This document shows positions 595-35,137 of a stretch of DNA of 64,000 nt, in pieces (positions within the stretch are counted from its first letter, which is position 1; every line of letters starts with the position of its first letter). A model generated the notes under the pieces. That model ran no database searches, was not told the DNA's origin, and saw only the letters and a program-made list of their open reading frames with translations. A program made the translations under genes and the position numbers. Source of the stretch: Haloarcula salina (GTDB lineage: Archaea; Halobacteriota; Halobacteria; Halobacteriales; Haloarculaceae). Location: NCBI RefSeq assembly GCF_010119195.1, contig NZ_WRXL01000006.1, positions 186,001-250,000 of the forward strand, written 5' to 3'.

Positions 595-1776
595 ATGACC
601 GAGGACTATCCGGAGCCCCCGACGGAGCCACAGTCCGTGTCGGCGGCGGCGCTGCAATCGCGACTCGACGCCGGCGAACCGGTCCGACTGCTCGACGTTC
701 GCGACCGCGACGAGTACGAAGAGTGGCACATCGACGGCCCGTCGGTCACGGCGACGCAACTCCCGTTCCCGAAGTTCCTGCAGGCGAAGGTGACCGGCGA
801 GGTCGACGACCTCGTAGCGGACGTGGCCGGCTCGGGCCCGATAACCGTCGTCTGCGCCCGCGGCGAGGCCAGCGCCTTCGTCGCCGGCCTTCTGGCCGAC
901 CACGACGTGGACGCGCAGAACCTCGCCGACGGCATGGAGGGATGGGCCCGTCTCTACGATGCCCGCGAGATCCCTTGCGACGCGGCCACCGTCGTCCAGT
1001 ACCGACGCCCCGCCTCGGGCTGTCTCGGCTACATGGTCGTCAGCGACGGCGACGCCGCCGTCGTCGACCCGCTTCGGACGTTCGCCGACCGCTACGTCGC
1101 CGACGCCACCGAGCACGACGCGACGCTCCGCTACGCCGTCGACACGCACGTCCACGCCGACCACGTCAGCGGCGTTCGCCGCCTCGCTGCCGAGACCGAC
1201 GCCGAACCGGTCATGGCCACACGAGCGGTCGACCGCGGCGTCACGGACGCGGTGACCGCGCTCCCCGACGACGGGTCGCTCACCGTCGGCTCGGCGACGC
1301 TCCGCGCCCACCCCCTGCCCGGCCACACTACCGGCATGACCGGGTTCGCAGTCGGCGACGTGCTGCTGGCCGGCGACAGCGTCTTCCTCGACGGCGTCGC
1401 TCGCCCGGACCTCGAAGCCGGAGCCGAGGGCGCGCGCGACCTCGCTCGGGACCTCCACCGCACGCTGATCGAGCGCCTCGCCGCGTTCCCGGACGACACG
1501 CTCGTCGCACCGGGGCACTACGGCGACGCCGCGACGCCCGCGTCAGACGGGACCTACACCGCCCCCCTCGGCGATCTCCGCGAGCGCCACCCCGCCTTCT
1601 CGATGGACCGCGAAGCGTTCGTCGACGCCGTCTGCGACGACATACCCCCGCGGCCGGCCAACTTCGAACGCATCATCGCGATCAACCTCGGCACCGAAAC
1701 CGCCGACGACGACGCGGCCTTCGAACTCGAACTCGGGCCGAACAACTGCGCCGCCACCCCCACGGCCGACGACTGA
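595..1776 (+). CDS. Rhodanese / MBL-fold fusion, persulfide dioxygenase-like
   Basis: The 393-residue product has an N-terminal rhodanese domain (about residues 15-120) with a candidate persulfide cysteine in VVCARGEA (about residue 87). A metallo-beta-lactamase domain follows, with metal motifs THVHADH (about 182-188), LPGHTTGM, AGDSVF and APGHYGD. These match the ETHE1/glyoxalase-II-like branch, whose members oxidise glutathione or other low-molecular-weight persulfides; that activity is inferred from the family. The domain order is rhodanese first, whereas classical fused persulfide dioxygenases carry rhodanese at the C-terminus. The start is chosen because GGTTTATC at 564-571 is a good TATA box 27 nt upstream, implying a leaderless mRNA. 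An upstream in-frame start at 433 would overlap the divergent gene and is less likely. Confidence 0.9.
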   Translation: MTEDYPEPPTEPQSVSAAALQSRLDAGEPVRLLDVRDRDEYEEWHIDGPSVTATQLPFPKFLQAKVTGEVDDLVADVAGSGPITVVCARGEASAFVAGLLADHDVDAQNLADGMEGWARLYDAREIPCDAATVVQYRRPASGCLGYMVVSDGDAAVVDPLRTFADRYVADATEHDATLRYAVDTHVHADHVSGVRRLAAETDAEPVMATRAVDRGVTDAVTALPDDGSLTVGSATLRAHPLPGHTTGMTGFAVGDVLLAGDSVFLDGVARPDLEAGAEGARDLARDLHRTLIERLAAFPDDTLVAPGHYGDAATPASDGTYTAPLGDLRERHPAFSMDREAFVDAVCDDIPPRPANFERIIAINLGTETADDDAAFELELGPNNCAATPTADD

Positions 1777-1780
1777 GCGA

Positions 1781-2074
1781 CTAAAACGGCAACCGATCGC
1801 GAATTTGGTCCAGCAGCGATCCCTCCTCGTCCGGCACGTCGTCGCCCACCACGTCCTCCCCCGGCAGAATGACCGTCCGTTCGCCGTTGTCCTCGACCTC
1901 GATGAGGTCGTCCGCCTTGAGGGCCGCCAGCGCGTCTTCGATCCGGTCGATGTTCTCCTCCGTCCGCGACCGAAGCTCGAAGACGGTCATCCCCTCCTCG
2001 CGGCGGTCGGCGAGCGCGTCGAGCACCGCAACCTCGGTCTCGTCCCGGTCACGATACTCCGGCTTCGCTCTCAT
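1781..2074 (-). CDS. Small winged-helix protein, DUF6432-like
   Basis: This 97-residue protein begins MRAKPEYRDRDETEVAVLDA and contains a helix-turn-helix-like core (VFELRSRTEENIDRIEDALAAL) followed by a beta-wing-like stretch ending in TVILPG. The pattern fits the conserved haloarchaeal winged-helix family I associate with DUF6432, presumably DNA-binding; no target is known. The acidic tail ends LLDQIRDRLPF. It converges on the MBL-fold gene with only 4 bp between the stop codons. A TATA-like element (TCTAATCTT on the plus strand, 2098-2106) sits 28 nt before the ATG, supporting a leaderless transcript from this start. Confidence 0.8.
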   Translation of the reverse strand: MRAKPEYRDRDETEVAVLDALADRREEGMTVFELRSRTEENIDRIEDALAALKADDLIEVEDNGERTVILPGEDVVGDDVPDEEGSLLDQIRDRLPF

Positions 2075-2254
2075 GGTCCCCTCTATTACCGGACGGGTCT
2101 AATCTTTGTCCCCTGTCAACGGGTATAAAGAGAGAAGAGATCTGCACGGAGTTACTAGGTTCATATTTAGTCTCGAAAGACACAGCTGACCGTACATTAT
2201 AAAAATTACTAGAATAGAAGGGACAAACCTTGGATATTTATTAACCACTCGATT

Positions 2255-2917
2255 TTATTCGCGACCTTCGTAATCAGGATGTTCTGGACCTAATTCGATA
2301 GAACCCGCATAATGTGCCAGATAGAGGCGCTTTGACCACTTTCCAATAGAGTGTTGATAAGCCCAGTTGTATTTTAGGTAGCTTGTCTCGTACAATTTTC
2401 CCTCTGGCGTTAGAACAGTCACATTTACTGTATCTGGGATATATGTATGATCACGATCTGGGAAATCAGCAGAGTTCCACCGGTTGACAATATGCATATA
2501 GCTCAAAGCAATAAGCCGTCTCTCTTCTCTGCTAATTGACCTATTTCTTGGATTCTCCATTTCATATTGGATATGATATGATTCGTTCTCTGGATAGATC
2601 TCGGTATTAATAACCTTTGCAGTAATTCCAAGAGTCATCCAAATTCGAAATTCTTTATCGAATTGTCTATATTTTTGTCGACGATCGGCATATTTATCAA
2701 CCTCTGTTTTGGTCTGAATAGCTTCGTGAGGGGTCTTCTTTTTTGGTGTCGAACTCTTTCGGATTGCTGACTCTGTTGTTTTCTCAGTGGCTGTTTCTTC
2801 TGGAGTTAGTTCCGGTGTCACAGTACTTCTACTGGTTCCAAGGCTGGAACACCCCGAAAACAAGACAAGTGTGAGAATACTGAACAACACAAAACTCCTT
2901 TTTAAATCTAACATCAT
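2255..2917 (-). CDS. Low-GC secreted lipoprotein, uncharacterised
   Basis: The 220-residue product has a lipoprotein signal: a charged start, a hydrophobic core and the lipobox LFSGC at about residues 19-23, so it is expected to be lipid-anchored on the outside of the membrane. A Thr/Ser/Glu/Lys-rich linker follows (residues 25-75), then a globular domain with many Tyr, Trp and Lys residues. The gene is clearly AT-richer than almost everything else in the window and uses A/T-ending codons, suggesting recent acquisition. It lies 63 bp downstream of the PKD-domain gene on the same strand. An A/T-rich run around 2936-2950 is a plausible promoter. I do not recognise the globular domain. Confidence 0.75.
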   Translation of the reverse strand: MMLDLKRSFVLFSILTLVLFSGCSSLGTSRSTVTPELTPEETATEKTTESAIRKSSTPKKKTPHEAIQTKTEVDKYADRRQKYRQFDKEFRIWMTLGITAKVINTEIYPENESYHIQYEMENPRNRSISREERRLIALSYMHIVNRWNSADFPDRDHTYIPDTVNVTVLTPEGKLYETSYLKYNWAYQHSIGKWSKRLYLAHYAGSIELGPEHPDYEGRE

Positions 2918-2980
2918 CTTATATCTTATTTTATGCTACGTTTTTTATTTGCTTTCGCCATGTTGAAACGATTCTTTACT

Positions 2981-4111
2981 TCACGGCCCCCATCCACCAT
3001 AGACTGGACTGTCGTTACCTCCACTGGTATCATCCGTTCCTCCATCACACGTTTCACACCCACCAACACCATTGCTGGGAGTGTTTCTTACATCTGCTTT
3101 TCCATTTGAATCAGTCTCTTCGTGGAATATGAAATCAGGACTACTATCAGAATCGCTATCTCTATTATCGGTTTCTCTCTGTTGTCGCTGATTTAATAGG
3201 CTCCGACTTTCTTCATCAATTGTTTCTTTCGTGAACGTTTCCCCCAAACCATTTTTCGAGAGACTATCGGCTTCTTCCGGCTTAACGACCTGTGTAAGTT
3301 CGTTGTCTACGTACATCCAGATCCCGGGTTTCCCATCGACGTCGACGACGGTATCGCCGATAGTCATCGATGCGCCGGTGGTACACCCTCGATTCTGGTT
3401 GGAACTGTCGTAGTAGTTGATCGTACCGCCAGGACACGGCTCGGAACCGACGCCGCCGCCACCACCGCCGGTCGAGCTGACGACTCGGACGGTCTGGTTC
3501 GCGGCCCCGCGGTGGCCGGCCGCGTCGTACACGACGGCGCGGACTGAGATCGGACCGGTGGTGTTGAACGTCCACGGGTGCGTCGCGGTCGCGTTGTCGC
3601 CCGAGAGTTGCGCTCGCCGGACCATGCTTCCGTTGACGAGCCAGGCGAGCGACCGGAGAGACGCGTCGCCGGCGGTCACGGTGGCGGAGAGGTTCCGCTG
3701 CGCACCGACGGGGAGCGCCGTCGGCGACGACAGCGAGACCGTCGGTCCGCGAGGGTCGGTCACCGTCACGTAGAGCGTGTCCGAGCGGGTGGTCCCGTTG
3801 TCGTCGGTGACCGCGACAGTGACGTTGTATCGCCCGAGTTCAGTCGGGGTGAACGCCGTCTGGACGCAGGTCGGGCAGTCGGGCGCACGCGTCGCGCCGC
3901 CAGGCGTTCGGATGGTCCACTCCACGCGGCGGACGTCGCCGTCGGGGTCGCGCGACCCATTGGCGTCTAGGTGGACCGTCGCTCCGCGCTCAACCGACTG
4001 GTCGAGGCCAGCGTCGGGAAGCGGCGGTTCGTTCGCCGTCGCCGCGCCGGTGCTACTGAGAACCGGCAGGAGCAGACACAACGCGACGATCGCCGCCGTC
4101 GTCCAACGCAT
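2981..4111 (-). CDS. Secreted PKD-domain surface protein with a low-GC C-terminal region
   Basis: The 376-residue product starts with a Sec-type signal peptide (hydrophobic residues about 6-24) and then carries two immunoglobulin-like repeats. The first is a clear PKD domain (DPDGDVRRVEWTI, then GRYNVTVAVTDDNG, about residues 30-118); the second, weaker one covers about 125-210. After a Gly-rich linker at about residue 215 the character changes: this part has two CxxC-like pairs (EPCPGG, CETCDGG), many Ser/Asp/Asn residues and no membrane anchor. Base composition changes with it: the 5' two thirds are GC-rich and the last ~300 bp AT-rich. A TATA-like GTTATAAAA at 4136-4144 lies 29 nt before the ATG. 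Probably a cell-surface binding protein; the ligand is unknown. Confidence 0.8.
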   Translation of the reverse strand: MRWTTAAIVALCLLLPVLSSTGAATANEPPLPDAGLDQSVERGATVHLDANGSRDPDGDVRRVEWTIRTPGGATRAPDCPTCVQTAFTPTELGRYNVTVAVTDDNGTTRSDTLYVTVTDPRGPTVSLSSPTALPVGAQRNLSATVTAGDASLRSLAWLVNGSMVRRAQLSGDNATATHPWTFNTTGPISVRAVVYDAAGHRGAANQTVRVVSSTGGGGGGVGSEPCPGGTINYYDSSNQNRGCTTGASMTIGDTVVDVDGKPGIWMYVDNELTQVVKPEEADSLSKNGLGETFTKETIDEESRSLLNQRQQRETDNRDSDSDSSPDFIFHEETDSNGKADVRNTPSNGVGGCETCDGGTDDTSGGNDSPVYGGWGP

Positions 4112-4237: not shown

Positions 4238-5089
4238 ATGGGTCTCAAATGTTCCGTCCTCGGGCACAAGTACGGTGAGACCACCGTCGAGCGCGAGCGC
4301 GAAGAGCAGGGTAGCGAAGTCGTAATCACCATCCAGGAACGGGAGACCTGCGAACGGTGTGGGAACACACGGATCGTCTCGGAGAACAAGGAAGTGACGG
4401 CAATCGAGACGCCATCGGACATCGCGGGCGATCTCGTCGACGACGCGGACGCTGACGCGGCGGACGCCGAACCGGAGGGGAGCGAGTTCGAACCCCCAGA
4501 AGACGACGAGGCGGAAGACGCGTCCGACGGCTGGGACAGCGTCGACGAGGGCGTCGAGACGGAGCCCGTCGACCCGGATGTCGGTGGCGTGGGAGGCGGC
4601 GGATCGGACGAGGAGTCGGAACCGATCGACCCGTCGGCCGACGACGCCGAGATCATCGACGACGACGAGAGCGACGACGAGGCCGAAAGCGGGGACGTCG
4701 AACTGGACGAGCCCACGACGACGGTCGACGTACCGGACGCGGAGGGCGACGACTCGCTGGCCGGTGACGAGACGGATCCCGAGGAAGACGACGGGCTCAT
4801 CCTCGGCGAGGAGGACGAGGAGGGGACGAGCGGCGACCGGGAGCCCGGCGCGTGGCCCGAGGAGCCAGGAGACGACGGTGACGACTGGTCACCCGAGACG
4901 ATGCCCGTCGAGGACGACGACGAATCCGACGTCGAGCCCGTCGGTGAGAACGCCGTGACCGTTCCCGAAGGCGAGTTCCGCTGTCCCGAGTGCGGGTTCA
5001 CGACCGAGGTCGAATCGACCTCGCTGCGGGCCGGCGACTTCTGTCCCGAGTGCCACAAGGGGTCACTTATCAACCACCGCGACGAGTGA
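4238..5089 (+). CDS. Two zinc ribbons joined by a long acidic linker (DUF7093-like)
   Basis: The 283-residue protein opens with a small Cys/His module (C5, H10, then CERC at about residues 38-41). An extremely Asp/Glu-rich, probably disordered segment follows (about 65-235). The C-terminus is a zinc ribbon with two CPEC knuckles (about residues 249-252 and 270-273), ending in SLINHRDE. This layout matches a conserved haloarchaeal family I associate with DUF7093, of unknown function. The paired ribbons suggest a nucleic-acid or protein adaptor; that is inference. The next gene, DUF5611-like, begins 38 bp downstream on the same strand, so they may be co-transcribed. A clear TATA box fixes the start. 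Confidence 0.85.
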   Translation: MGLKCSVLGHKYGETTVEREREEQGSEVVITIQERETCERCGNTRIVSENKEVTAIETPSDIAGDLVDDADADAADAEPEGSEFEPPEDDEAEDASDGWDSVDEGVETEPVDPDVGGVGGGGSDEESEPIDPSADDAEIIDDDESDDEAESGDVELDEPTTTVDVPDAEGDDSLAGDETDPEEDDGLILGEEDEEGTSGDREPGAWPEEPGDDGDDWSPETMPVEDDDESDVEPVGENAVTVPEGEFRCPECGFTTEVESTSLRAGDFCPECHKGSLINHRDE

Positions 5090-31320: not shown

Positions 31321-34296
31321 ATGAGCAAGGACGTTATCGAGGTCCGAGGGGCCGAGGAACACAACCTCAAGGACGTCGACGTGGAGATCCCCCGCGAGGA
31401 GCTGACGGTCGTGACGGGGCTGTCCGGCTCGGGGAAGTCTTCGCTCGCCTTCGAGACGGTGTACGCCGAGGGCCAGCGCCGGTACATCGAGTCGCTGTCG
31501 GCGTACGCCCGGAACTTCCTGGGCCAGATGGACAAGCCGCAGGTCGAGAACGTCGAGGGGCTGTCGCCGGCCATCTCCATCGACCAGAAGAACGCCGCCA
31601 ACAACCCCCGCTCGACGGTGGGGACCGTCACCGAGCTACACGACTACCTCCGCCTGCTGTACGCCCGCGTCGGCACGCCGCACTGTCCCGAGTGCGGCCG
31701 CGAGGTGGGCGAGCAGTCCGCCCAGAACATGGTGTCGCGCCTGCTCGAACTCCCCGAGGGGACCCGAGCGAAGCTGTGTGCGCCGGTCGTCCGCGACCAG
31801 AAGGGGGCCTTCGAGGACCTGTTCGACGACCTCGTGAGCGAGGGGTACAGCCGCGTCGAGGTCGACGGCGAGTCTTACGACCTCACGCTCGACCGACCCG
31901 ACCTCGACGAGAACTACGACCACACGGTCGACGTGGTCGTCGACCGCGTCAAGATCGCGCCGGACGCCCGCTCGCGCATCACCGACTCGGTGGAGACCGC
32001 GCTGACCGAGGCCGACGGGACGCTGAAGGTCATCCTCCCGGACCCGCCGGAGGGCGCGGCCGAGACGCTCGGCGGATCGGACGCCCGCGCGACGGGCGAC
32101 CTGGCCGGCGACGGGGCCGACGGCGGCGAGCGCGAGCGCCTCGTCGTCGAACTCTCCGAGGACCTCGCCTGCACCCACTGCGGCATCGACATCTCGGAGA
32201 TCGAGACGCGCTCGTTCTCGTTCAACTCCCCCCACGGGGCCTGCCCCGAGTGCGAGGGGCTGGGCGAGACAAAGGAGGTCAGCGAGGACCTCGTGATCCG
32301 GGACCCGTCGAAGCCGCTGAAGCACGTCTTCGAGCCCTGGAGCTACGACCGGACGTACTACTCCCGACAGCTGGACAACGTCGCCGAGCACTTCGGCGTC
32401 TCGCTGTCGACGCCGTTCGAGGAGCTTGACGAGGAGGTCCGGCGGCAGTTCCTCTACGGCACGGACGACCTCGTCCACTTCCAGTGGCGCACCAAGAACG
32501 GCACGCGCGAGAAGACCGAGCGCTTCGAGGGCGTCATCCCGAACCTCGAACGCCGCCACGTCGAGACGGACTCCGACCGCGCCCGCGAGCACATCGAGGA
32601 GTACATGGCGACAACCACGTGCCCGGCCTGTGAGGGGACCCGGCTCAAGGCGGAGTCCCGGGCGGTGCTCGTCGACGGCACGTCGATCACCGAGGTCAAC
32701 GAGCTGTCCATCGGCGACGCGCTGGCGCACTTCGAGGGCCTGGAGGCGGACCTCTCGGCGCGCGACCGGAAGATCGCCGAGGAGATCCTCAAGGAGATCC
32801 GCGCCCGCCTGGGCTTCATGACCGAGGTCGGCCTGGACTATCTGACGCTGGACCGCGAGGCCTCGACGCTGTCGGGCGGCGAGAGCCAGCGCATCCGGCT
32901 GGCGACCCAGATCGGCTCGGGGCTGGTCGGCGTGCTGTACGTCCTCGACGAGCCCTCCATCGGCCTCCACCAGCGCGACAACGACCGCCTGCTGAACACC
33001 TTAGAGGAACTCCGAGACCTCGGCAACACCCTGCTCGTCGTCGAGCACGACACCGAGACGATGCGGCGGGCCGACGCCATCATCGACATGGGTCCGGGAC
33101 CGGGCAAGCGCGGCGGCGAGGTCGTCGTCAACGGCCCGTTCGACGAGGTGACCGCCTGCGAGGAGTCGGTGACCGGCGAGTACCTCGCGGGCGAGCGAGC
33201 GATTCCCGTCCCCGAGGAGCGCCGCGAGCGCGACGGCGAACTCGTCGTCAGGGGAGCGCGCCAGCACAACCTCGCGGACCTCGACGTGACCGTCCCGCTG
33301 GGGACGTTCACGGCCATCACGGGCGTCTCCGGCTCCGGCAAGTCGACGCTGATGCACGACGTGCTGTACAAGGGGCTGGTCCGGCGGATGAACGACACCG
33401 ACGTGAACCCCGGCGAGCACGACGACATCGAGGGCATCGACCAGATCGAGTCGGTGCGGCTCATCGACCAGTCTCCCATCGGCCGCACCCCGCGGTCGAA
33501 CCCGGCGACCTACACCAACGTCTTCGACCACATCCGCGAGCTGTTCGCCGAGACGAGCCTCGCGAAACAGCGGGGCTACGAGAAGGGCCGGTTCTCGTTC
33601 AACGTCAAGGGCGGCCGCTGTGAGGCCTGTGGCGGGCAGGGCACGGTCACCATCGACATGAACTTCCTCTCGGACGTGACCGTCCCCTGCGAGGAGTGCG
33701 GCGGCGCGCGCTACAACGACGAGACGCTGGACGTGACCTACAAGGGCGCGACCATCGCCGACGTGCTGGAGATGACCGTCGAGGAGGCCTACGACTTCTT
33801 CGAGAGCCACTCGGGGATCCGCCGCCGCCTCGAACTCCTGAAAGACGTGGGGCTGGGCTACATGCGCCTCGGCCAGCCCTCGACCACGCTGTCGGGCGGC
33901 GAGGCCCAGCGCGTGAAGCTCGCCGAGGAACTGGGAAAGAAGGACTCCGGCGAGACGCTGTACCTGCTCGACGAGCCGACCACCGGGCTCCACCCGGAAG
34001 ACGAGCGAAAGCTCATCGACGTGCTCCACCGCCTCACCGACGACGGCAACACCGTGGTCGTCATCGAGCACGAACTCGACCTCGTGAAGAACGCCGACCA
34101 CGTCGTCGACCTCGGGCCCGAGGGCGGCGAGAACGGCGGCGAACTGGTCGCCGAAGGGACCCCGGAGGACGTGGCCCGGACGGAGGAATCGTACACCGGG
34201 CAGTACCTCCGCGACCTGCTGCCGAACGTCGAGCTTGAAGGGCCTCGCGCCGACCGCGAATCGGCGGCCGAACAGCCGGCCGCGGACGACGACTAA
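31321..34296 (+). CDS. uvrA: Excinuclease ABC subunit A (UvrA)
   Basis: The 991-residue protein is a complete UvrA: Walker A sites GLSGSGKSS (about 32-40) and GVSGSGKST (about 668-676), signature motifs LSGGESQR and LSGGEAQR, and Walker B sites VLDEPSIGL and LLDEPTTGL. The zinc-finger cysteines occur as CTHCGID/CPECEGL and [17 protein letters not shown]. It recognises bulky DNA lesions as a dimer and loads UvrB in nucleotide excision repair. No uvrB or uvrC lies in the window. The C-terminal ~20 residues are an acidic tail. Its stop overlaps the 3' end of the PIN gene on the other strand. Confidence 0.98.
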
Positions 34297-34844
34297 TCGG
34301 CCGCGTCGTCGATCAGTTGTTCCGCTCGCTTCACGAGACTCGCACTGAGGCGGGCTCCGACTTCGTCCATCGCGTAGAGTGTCTGTTTGGCGTCTTCGGC
34401 GGTACACTCGCCACGCTCGACTGCTCGTATCAGGACACCGATCGATCCGGAGATGAGGATCGACAGCGCCTTGCAGGTCTGTCGAAGCGGTTTGTCGTCA
34501 GTTATCACGACTGGCCGATCGTTTCTTAATGCCATCGCAAGAAGTCCGACATCGCCTGTAAAATCAGATTCATCTTCAACTCCTAATTGGGAAGCCGCCG
34601 TCTGAACGTACTCATCGATGTCATCGAATATATTTTTATTTTTTAGTATTGGTTCAAATTGTACCCAGTTATCACTCGCACTCTCTAGATCTTTCATCGC
34701 TGGGTTCGTTTTAATTTCTTTAAAAACAGATACTGGGATTACAATCTTCCCATCCAAGCCTCGTAAAAGGTCCAAAGAGTTGGTCTCCGAAAGCGTGATC
34801 CAGACGCTCGCATCAACCAACAACGTCCGGTCGCGGTCGGTCAT
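34293..34844 (-). CDS. PIN-domain toxin (VapC-like)
   Basis: The 183-residue protein has the PIN active-site acids: LLVDASVWITL (Asp), VFKEIKTNP (Glu), FTGDVGLLAMALR (Asp) and VVITDDKPLRQ (Asp), consistent with a VapC-type ribonuclease toxin. It is longer than typical VapC (~130) because of a C-terminal helical extension (about 140-183). The middle of the gene (about 34520-34770) is distinctly AT-rich compared with both flanks. Its ATG overlaps the antitoxin stop by 4 bp, and its 3' end overlaps the uvrA 3' end by 4 bp, so antisense interference with uvrA is possible. Confidence 0.85.
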   Translation of the reverse strand: MTDRDRTLLVDASVWITLSETNSLDLLRGLDGKIVIPVSVFKEIKTNPAMKDLESASDNWVQFEPILKNKNIFDDIDEYVQTAASQLGVEDESDFTGDVGLLAMALRNDRPVVITDDKPLRQTCKALSILISGSIGVLIRAVERGECTAEDAKQTLYAMDEVGARLSASLVKRAEQLIDDAAD

Positions 34845-35137
34845 CGCAACGCATCCACGTCATCCGCGAGGTCGACCTCGTCGTAGTTCGACAGCACTCC
34901 GCGGTCGTTCGCTTCAGCCATCATCTCCGCGATGGTGACCCCAGCCAAATCCGCCGCACCGCGCATCCCGATCTCTCCGTCCTGATAGCGCTGGAGAGCG
35001 ACCCGAATGAGTTCCTCGCGAGCGCCCTGCCGGATCGCCTGCCTGATCGCGTCGCTCCGGCTCTCTCCTTTCGCCTCGGCGAGACGCGCCACCAGATCGA
35101 GTTCCGTATCGCTCATTCGAGTCGTGACGTTCTCCAT
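34841..35137 (-). CDS. UPF0175-like ribbon-helix-helix antitoxin
   Basis: The 98-residue protein has a ribbon-helix-helix N-terminus (VTTRMSDTELDLVARLAEAK, then SDAIRQAIRQG) and a C-terminal UPF0175-like segment (YQDGEIGMRGAADLAGV, then a toxin-neutralising helix). It presumably binds and blocks the PIN toxin encoded directly downstream with a 4 bp overlap. An upstream in-frame ATG at 35158 lies inside the core promoter, only 3 nt from the TATA box, whereas the ATG at 35137 sits 27 nt from it; I therefore start at 35137. The operator-like palindrome lies between box and start. Confidence 0.85.
   Translation of the reverse strand: MENVTTRMSDTELDLVARLAEAKGESRSDAIRQAIRQGAREELIRVALQRYQDGEIGMRGAADLAGVTIAEMMAEANDRGVLSNYDEVDLADDVDALR

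What the first reader, a model, noticed from the sequence alone, without database searches (positions are those of the whole stretch)
2150..3300. Low-GC island cutting into the 3' end of a PKD surface protein gene
Bases ~2150-3300 are clearly AT-richer than the surroundings. They hold a whole lipoprotein gene and the last ~300 bp of the PKD gene, whose 5' part is GC-rich. The shift falls inside one reading frame, at the Gly-rich linker, so the protein looks like a chimera: a native PKD stem with an imported variable C-terminal domain. This could be a cassette-exchange site for surface or effector-like domains.
Basis: partly seen in the sequence, partly recalled or inferred. Interest (0 to 1): 0.5.

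Follow-up and report, generated by a model that had tools for sequence, protein, structure and literature searches.

The report
Swappable surface-protein tail and lipoprotein pair
In salt-loving archaea, one chromosomal site keeps the same front half of a secreted protein while its back half and the neighbouring membrane-anchored lipoprotein are exchanged together between species, which looks like a recognition or rivalry system.

Summary
The low-GC block is real: change points 2081-3315, 41% GC against 66-71% outside. It is not a recent import onto a native stem. Gene order (DUF7093 | PKD gene, lipoprotein, DUF6432 | MBL-rhodanese) is kept in 28 of 29 congener loci fetched, and C-terminus and lipoprotein are AT-richer than the stem in 31 of 31 genus loci. 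The exchange idea nevertheless holds at the allele level. Sister species with 90-99% identical flanks and stem drop to about 50-70% from the linker through the lipoprotein and return to about 93% at DUF6432; others share near-identical segments despite more distant flanks. C-domain and lipoprotein travel together (Mantel r 0.68), decoupled from flanks (r 0.00); AU tests agree. A sister genus repeats this at another site. Across the class the same single-copy stem carries unrelated C-termini, mostly with their own partner family. Partnerless lipoprotein copies occur in three species, one on a named plasmid. Best reading: a polymorphic recognition or antagonism module comparable to VARTIG; function inferred, not shown.

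The parts
2081..3315 (.). low-GC block; matches, except for its PKD-side edge, the divergence island seen between congeners
   Evidence: change-point fit; sliding GC; congener islands
2981..4111 (-). gene for the secreted PKD protein (376 aa)
   Evidence: ORF; PKD_4 E 2.9e-11; homologues in 50 of 60 relatives
3761..4033 (-). PKD domain (residues 27-117), first half of the conserved GC-rich stem
   Evidence: Pfam; AF2 beta strands, pLDDT mostly 70-90
3479..3760 (-). second Ig-like domain (residues 118-211), rest of the stem
   Evidence: AF2 beta strands; weak Big_7 match below cut-off
3449..3469 (-). Gly-rich linker (residues 215-221); first step of the GC fall
   Evidence: sequence; codon-bin GC
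3206..3436 (-). variable C-domain (residues 226-302), with two cysteines invariant in 31 of 31 rows
   Evidence: alignment A5; found in 15 of 292 class genomes, all in this genus
2984..3205 (-). low-complexity acidic tail (residues 303-376), with a CxxC in this genome
   Evidence: sequence; pLDDT under 50 from residue 319 on
2255..2917 (-). partner lipoprotein gene (220 aa)
   Evidence: ORF; no Pfam, NCBIfam or PADLOC family; syntenic relatives
2849..2863 (-). lipobox L-F-S-G-C of the lipoprotein (residues 19-23)
   Evidence: sequence; G22 invariant and C23 nearly invariant in alignments
2258..2683 (-). conserved C-terminal domain of the lipoprotein (residues 79-220)
   Evidence: alignments; AF2 helix/strand core
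1781..2074 (-). DUF6432 gene: conserved right flank at which identity between congeners returns to about 93%
   Evidence: Pfam E 2.2e-39
4238..5089 (+). DUF7093 gene: conserved flank upstream of the PKD gene
   Evidence: Pfam E 2.2e-38
595..1776 (+). rhodanese-metallo-beta-lactamase gene: conserved outer flank used as reference for species relationships
   Evidence: Pfam

Best explanation
This is one allele of a polymorphic two-protein surface module. Shown: a conserved GC-rich PKD/Ig stem is followed by a variable C-domain and tail, and the next gene encodes a lipoprotein with a membrane-anchoring lipobox. The segment from about the end of the stem through the lipoprotein is replaced as one unit between species, so allele classes cross species borders; partnerless lipoprotein copies exist, one of them on a plasmid. 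Inferred: replacement is by homologous recombination in the conserved stem and the conserved downstream flank. The secreted PKD protein displays or delivers its C-domain towards neighbouring cells, and the cognate lipoprotein on the cell's own membrane binds that C-domain, as self-protection (immunity) or as self-recognition. Rare-allele advantage then keeps many allele classes alive. Least certain: whether the C-domain is toxic or only a recognition tag.
For: Pair conserved in order in 28 of 29 fetched congener loci. Identity islands with sharp edges in sister pairs: L041/L045 flanks 94, stem 97, C-domain 67, lipoprotein 52; L040/L043 95, 95, 74, 68; L048/L050 91, 90, 59, 54 (protein %; DNA profile). 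Inverse case L037/L040: flanks 91, lipoprotein 99. In 14 Haloarcula loci flanks against stem r 0.71 (P 0.0005), flanks against lipoprotein r 0.00 (P 0.47), C-domain against lipoprotein r 0.68 (P 0.0001; 0.73 given flanks). AU tests: 6 of 6 flank clades rejected by lipoprotein data (P 6e-4 or less), 4 of 5 lipoprotein clades rejected by flank data. Lipoprotein dS below that of DUF7093, stem and MBL genes in 3 of 9 near pairs that I chose (L037/L040, L032/L039, L038/L039), with omega 0.08-0.45 in all 9: recent exchange of a gene under purifying selection. Sister genus g29, at another chromosomal site: 3 of 4 pairs examined show the same island. Same stem once per genome in 86 of 292 class genomes, with unrelated C-termini, mostly each with its own partner family. 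Partnerless lipoprotein copies in three species, one on a named Haloarcula taiwanensis plasmid. Partner fused to a membrane-spanning segment instead of a lipobox in g29.
Against: No toxin domain was found: C-domain and lipoprotein have no credible Pfam, NCBIfam or PADLOC family and no convincing PDB relative. C-domain and lipoprotein lie next to each other, so their correlation may be plain linkage. The C-domain still follows the flanks weakly (r 0.36, P 0.04). Size-matched islands are few but not unique in two 200-kb controls. In other genera the whole PKD gene, stem included, diverges from its flanks without an abrupt step. In one g30 genome the lipoprotein lies on the opposite strand. Only one genome per species was available, so within-species polymorphism is untested.
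Confidence: 0.55

Rival explanations
1. The pair is a surface target under pressure from viruses: C-domain and lipoprotein are exposed, viruses bind them, and alleles are swapped to escape. No rivalry between cells is involved; the plasmid copies would act like superinfection or entry exclusion.
For: Secretion signal and lipobox; trans-species alleles; partnerless copies in three species, one on a plasmid, in one of them near a PrgI-like gene of conjugation type (E 3.3e-4, below cut-off).
Against: Does not by itself explain why the C-terminus of a secreted protein and a separate lipoprotein switch together, or why unrelated C-termini mostly have their own partner families. No relative of the partnerless lipoprotein in 50,697 phage records.
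Confidence: 0.22
2. One reading: a low-GC cassette was recently inserted onto a native PKD stem in this genome.
For: This genome has the largest stem-to-lipoprotein GC difference of 31 genus loci (30.7 points, next 23.6) and the lowest lipoprotein GC4 of the loci computed (28%, others 40-75); its lipoprotein matches the partnerless copies better (40%, E 1e-50) than any syntenic one (best E 2e-39).
Against: Same order, domains and GC fall in the relatives; C-domain and lipoprotein are recognisable orthologues (55% and 37% mean identity to 14 Haloarcula); no donor found; insertion does not explain the island in all other genomes.
Confidence: 0.1
3. Neutral fast evolution: a dispensable gene pair under relaxed constraint drifts to AT and diverges quickly, with some ordinary interspecies recombination.
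For: Haloarchaea recombine widely (start of the abstract of PMC3988388 seen in a search listing); other islands exist in the 200-kb controls; gradual divergence without steps in several other genera.
Against: The pair was never missing where the locus was readable in the genus; omega 0.08-0.45 within allele classes; abrupt edges and lower dS than flanks in some pairs; same stem kept once per genome in 86 of 292 genomes.
Confidence: 0.13

Closest known systems
VARTIG modules of Thermococcales (PMC8416519; abstract, results part 1, and the sections on recombination, other archaea and discussion read)
   Same: Secreted Ig-fold protein with a conserved N-terminal part and a hypervariable C-terminus, followed by membrane proteins; exchange between species at the same site; no recognised toxin; same open question of conflict against recognition.
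   Different: Here one PKD plus one Ig-like domain, not five Ig domains; one fixed locus per genome with one main partner, not patchy islands of 1-25 genes with extra Ig genes; the variable unit is a cysteine-marked C-domain, not an Ig domain; the edges can be mapped in DNA. The paper reports no counterpart outside Thermococcales.
Bacterial polymorphic toxin systems / contact-dependent inhibition (PMC3482391 seen in search listing with start of abstract only; details recalled)
   Same: Constant N-terminal part, variable C-terminus, adjacent co-varying protector gene, partnerless protector copies.
   Different: No toxin domain found; within this genus the C-domains are homologous alleles; no silent cassettes next to the locus were seen; the partner is a lipoprotein or membrane-spanning protein outside the membrane.
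Haloarchaeal PKD surface proteins in general
   Same: Signal sequence and PKD domain.
   Different: Single-copy stem family with its own partner gene and an exchanged C-terminal segment.

Membership tests
VARTIG | large protein with several Ig domains of arCOG07710 | tested here: not met
   one PKD domain and one further Ig-like region by Pfam and AF2; arCOG assignment not testable
VARTIG | hypervariable C-terminus shaped by recombination between species | tested here: met
VARTIG | downstream smaller genes homologous to the C-terminus of the large protein | tested here: not met
   0 BLAST hits between C-termini and partners at E 1e-4
VARTIG | patchy islands confined to Thermococcales | tested here: not met
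   haloarchaeal locus with conserved order in the genus
Polymorphic toxin system | C-terminal toxin domain | tested here: inconclusive
   no known domain; activity not testable here
Polymorphic toxin system | cognate immunity gene directly downstream, co-varying with the C-terminus | tested here: inconclusive
   adjacency and co-variation met; immunity function not testable here
Polymorphic toxin system | alternative non-homologous C-termini on one stem | tested here: met
   BLAST clusters of C-termini; same site with unrelated C-termini in L144 and L145
Polymorphic toxin system | orphan immunity genes elsewhere | tested here: inconclusive
   partnerless lipoprotein copies in G011, G027, G005; that they protect is not shown
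Bacterial-type lipoprotein | lipobox at the end of a signal sequence | tested here: met
   L-F-S-G-C; G22 invariant, C23 nearly invariant; lipidation itself not tested

The most novel reading that the evidence does not exclude
Haloarchaea carry a class-wide, single-copy allorecognition or antagonism locus: a constant PKD stem whose C-terminal specificity part and cognate membrane partner are exchanged together between species and kept polymorphic by rare-allele advantage, with plasmids carrying extra partner genes that widen the self-type.
Probability: 0.33. Interest if true: 0.82.

Novelty: new variant of a known kind. Interest (0 to 1): 0.62.

Why it matters
How archaea tell self from non-self and fight their own kin is poorly known. 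The one published hypervariable Ig module of archaea (VARTIG) was reported to have no counterpart outside Thermococcales, and its exchange edges could not be mapped for want of close genomes. Here such a module sits at a fixed site in culturable haloarchaea, with edges mapped and alleles paired with a partner gene, so the rival hypotheses can be tested directly.

Tried and rejected
Recent import into this genome: rejected as the main explanation, because relatives share order and composition. Amino-acid bias as the only cause of low GC: rejected, because fourfold sites are low too. Positive selection within allele classes: not seen, omega 0.08-0.45 in 9 near pairs that I chose. A known fold for the lipoprotein: AF2 mean pLDDT 66 from 8 sequences, 0 PDB matches at E 0.001 or better; PDB sequence hits (7, E 6e-4 to 1) mostly cover the signal and Thr/Pro-rich part. 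The PKD-protein model (pLDDT 61, C-domain about 50-70) was judged too weak for a fold search. Distant lipoprotein hits in the class search: 226 of 292 genomes pass E 1e-4, but most cover only the lipobox and linker; I counted only matches spanning most of the profile (this genus and five genomes of g29). L067 and L071, first taken as having the partner, were dropped as false after alignment. Phage records: no match. Plasmid records: one match for the partnerless lipoprotein. Papers: six searches listed no description of this module; a 2019 paper on archaeal polymorphic toxins that I wanted was not held.

Controls against uniqueness: in 200 kb of G031 against G003 there are 8 low-identity runs, two of them of similar size in both genomes, ours the larger; in 200 kb of G004 against G018 there are 17 runs, ours 2100/2423 bp, with a few other size-matched ones, smaller except one of 2250/3307 bp.

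Full report
OBSERVATION. The window is from a haloarchaeon whose congeners include named Haloarcula species. GC is 41% in 2081-3315 and 66-71% outside. The block covers the lipoprotein gene 2255-2917 and the last ~335 bp of the PKD gene 2981-4111, both on the minus strand. The fall inside the PKD frame starts at the Gly-rich linker and is complete ~50 codons later. Fourfold-degenerate sites of the lipoprotein are 28% GC, against 84-92% in the neighbouring genes.

THE LOCUS IN RELATIVES. A full-length PKD search hit 50 of 60 relatives. I fetched 29 congener loci; the other two of 31 congeners, G006 (match at a contig end) and G010 (weak match only), were not taken. In 28 of 29 the order DUF7093 | PKD, lipoprotein, DUF6432 | MBL-rhodanese holds (lipoproteins too diverged for BLAST in six of them were found as ORFs and by alignment); in L053 (G014) the two downstream flank genes were not found in the fetched stretch. 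The partner is short (~220 aa) or long (~360 aa, with a PPC-like insert in some). In L032-L045 a small membrane-protein gene often stands between PKD and partner. Low GC in C-terminus and partner relative to the stem was found in 31 of 31 genus loci (29 congener loci, a second copy L069, and this genome; median partner difference 16.3 points, maximum 30.7 in this genome). So low GC belongs to the module; this genome is only its extreme case.

EXCHANGE OF THE C-TERMINAL PART WITH THE LIPOPROTEIN. Among 14 Haloarcula loci (L032-L045), protein identities of flanks, stem, C-domain and lipoprotein disagree. L040/L043: 95, 95, 74, 68. L037/L040: flanks 91, lipoprotein 99. DNA profiles show flanks and stem at 90-99%, a fall to about 50-70% from ~650-750 bp of the PKD gene, and a return to 93% or more at DUF6432; L035/L042 have a shorter tract. 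Mantel tests: flanks-stem r 0.71 P 0.0005; flanks-C-domain 0.36 P 0.04; flanks-lipoprotein 0.00 P 0.47; C-domain-lipoprotein 0.68 P 0.0001, 0.73 given flanks. With this genome added (15 loci) flanks-lipoprotein rises to 0.63 (P 0.03), because this genome is an outlier in every part. AU tests rejected 6 of 6 flank clades on lipoprotein data and 4 of 5 lipoprotein clades on flank data (L033+L034 P 0.07); the clades were named after seeing the trees. In 3 of 9 near pairs that I chose, lipoprotein dS is lower than in DUF7093, stem and MBL genes; in one of these, L037/L040, DUF6432 is lower still. With the 200-kb controls I conclude that this is a marked but not unique exchange island.

INDEPENDENT REPEAT. 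In five genomes of a sister genus (g29; L133-L137) the pair lies beside other genes. L135/L137, L136/L137 and L133/L134 show stem mostly 87-98% (76% in its last bin for L133/L134), island 33-65%, downstream 89-100%; L135/L136 show no island. In L135 and L137 the small membrane protein is fused to the partner domain, replacing the lipobox. A sixth g29 genome, G291, has the stem but no full-length partner hit.

CLASS-WIDE VIEW. The stem occurs once in each of 86 of 292 class genomes, 30 of 77 genera (E 1e-24 or better). I fetched 40 such loci, chosen to include sister species. C-terminal GC is below stem GC in 40 of 40, and partner GC in 37 of the 37 with a called partner. The partner caller was crude: L166's call is doubtful, and L145's likely partner lies on the opposite strand. 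BLAST clusters at E 1e-4: 29 long C-termini (~790-980 aa) in one cluster and their 28 called partners in another; g1 C-termini in clusters of 25 and 5 plus one single; g30, g34 and others separate. Partners of g1 and part of g30 fall in one cluster of 34, although that could partly reflect shared signal and linker sequence. There are 0 C-terminus/partner cross hits. In g30, L144 and L145 share flanks (84% and 80%) but have unrelated C-termini, and lipoproteins only remotely alike (E 4e-6). In most other genera the whole PKD gene with its partner diverges faster than both flanks, without a sharp step: rapid evolution is general, clear allele swapping is shown in two genera.

PARTNERLESS LIPOPROTEINS. 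This genome's lipoprotein matches best (40%) to copies away from the PKD locus in G011, G027 and G005, near-identical to each other and with no PKD gene near. G027's copy is on a 129,893-bp Haloarcula taiwanensis plasmid. G005's contig is only 3.2 kb, so its surroundings are largely unknown. Those genomes have one C-domain each, at the main locus.

MECHANISM. Shown: conserved order, paired allele exchange, purifying selection within classes, partnerless copies. Inferred: homologous recombination through stem and DUF6432; the lipoprotein as cognate protector or receptor; rare-allele advantage. Toxicity is not shown and no toxin domain was found. I give the recognition-or-antagonism reading 0.55, virus-driven change 0.22, neutral 0.13, recent import 0.10.

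KNOWN RELATIVES. VARTIG of Thermococcales (PMC8416519; abstract, results part 1, recombination, other-archaea and discussion sections read) works most alike but fails several membership features. Its authors looked for counterparts in other archaea, Halobacteria included, and found no closely similar module. Six literature searches listed no description of the present locus; that is no proof of absence.

Noticed in passing
L072 6219-6944 (G011:C1), L073 (G027:C3), L076 277-1002: Near-identical partnerless lipoprotein copies in three Haloarcula species, one on a named plasmid; in L072 a PIN-domain gene and a PrgI-like gene (below cut-off) lie within ~4 kb.
   Followed up: partly
L135 and L137 (genus g29): Small membrane protein that stands alone before the lipoprotein in many Haloarcula is fused to the partner domain here, suggesting the two act together at the membrane.
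   Followed up: partly
window 3206-3436 and alignment A5: C-domain holds a D-x-[DN]-G-like loop that resembles calcium-binding loops (motif recalled, not tested).
   Followed up: no
PKD tails in L046, L049, L054, L057, L059, L069, L070: Several otherwise unlike low-complexity tails contain a CxxC or similar cysteine pair; the 14 Haloarcula tails instead end in aromatic residues such as W-S-F-W.
   Followed up: no
L069 (G001:C1:1435687-1448245): Second PKD-lipoprotein pair in one congener, at another chromosomal site.
   Followed up: partly
L145 2406-3518, strand opposite to the PKD gene: Lipoprotein gene lies on the opposite strand to its PKD gene at the same site where L144 has it on the same strand.
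   Followed up: partly
L138 4037-5858 (G035): Two adjacent related lipoprotein genes (294 and 285 aa) without a PKD stem gene seen; apparently another lipoprotein family.
   Followed up: no
window 34001-35000: A milder GC dip (58%) elsewhere in the window.
   Followed up: no
G031:C25:69901-70951 against G003: Another size-matched divergence island between sister species, gene content not examined.
   Followed up: no
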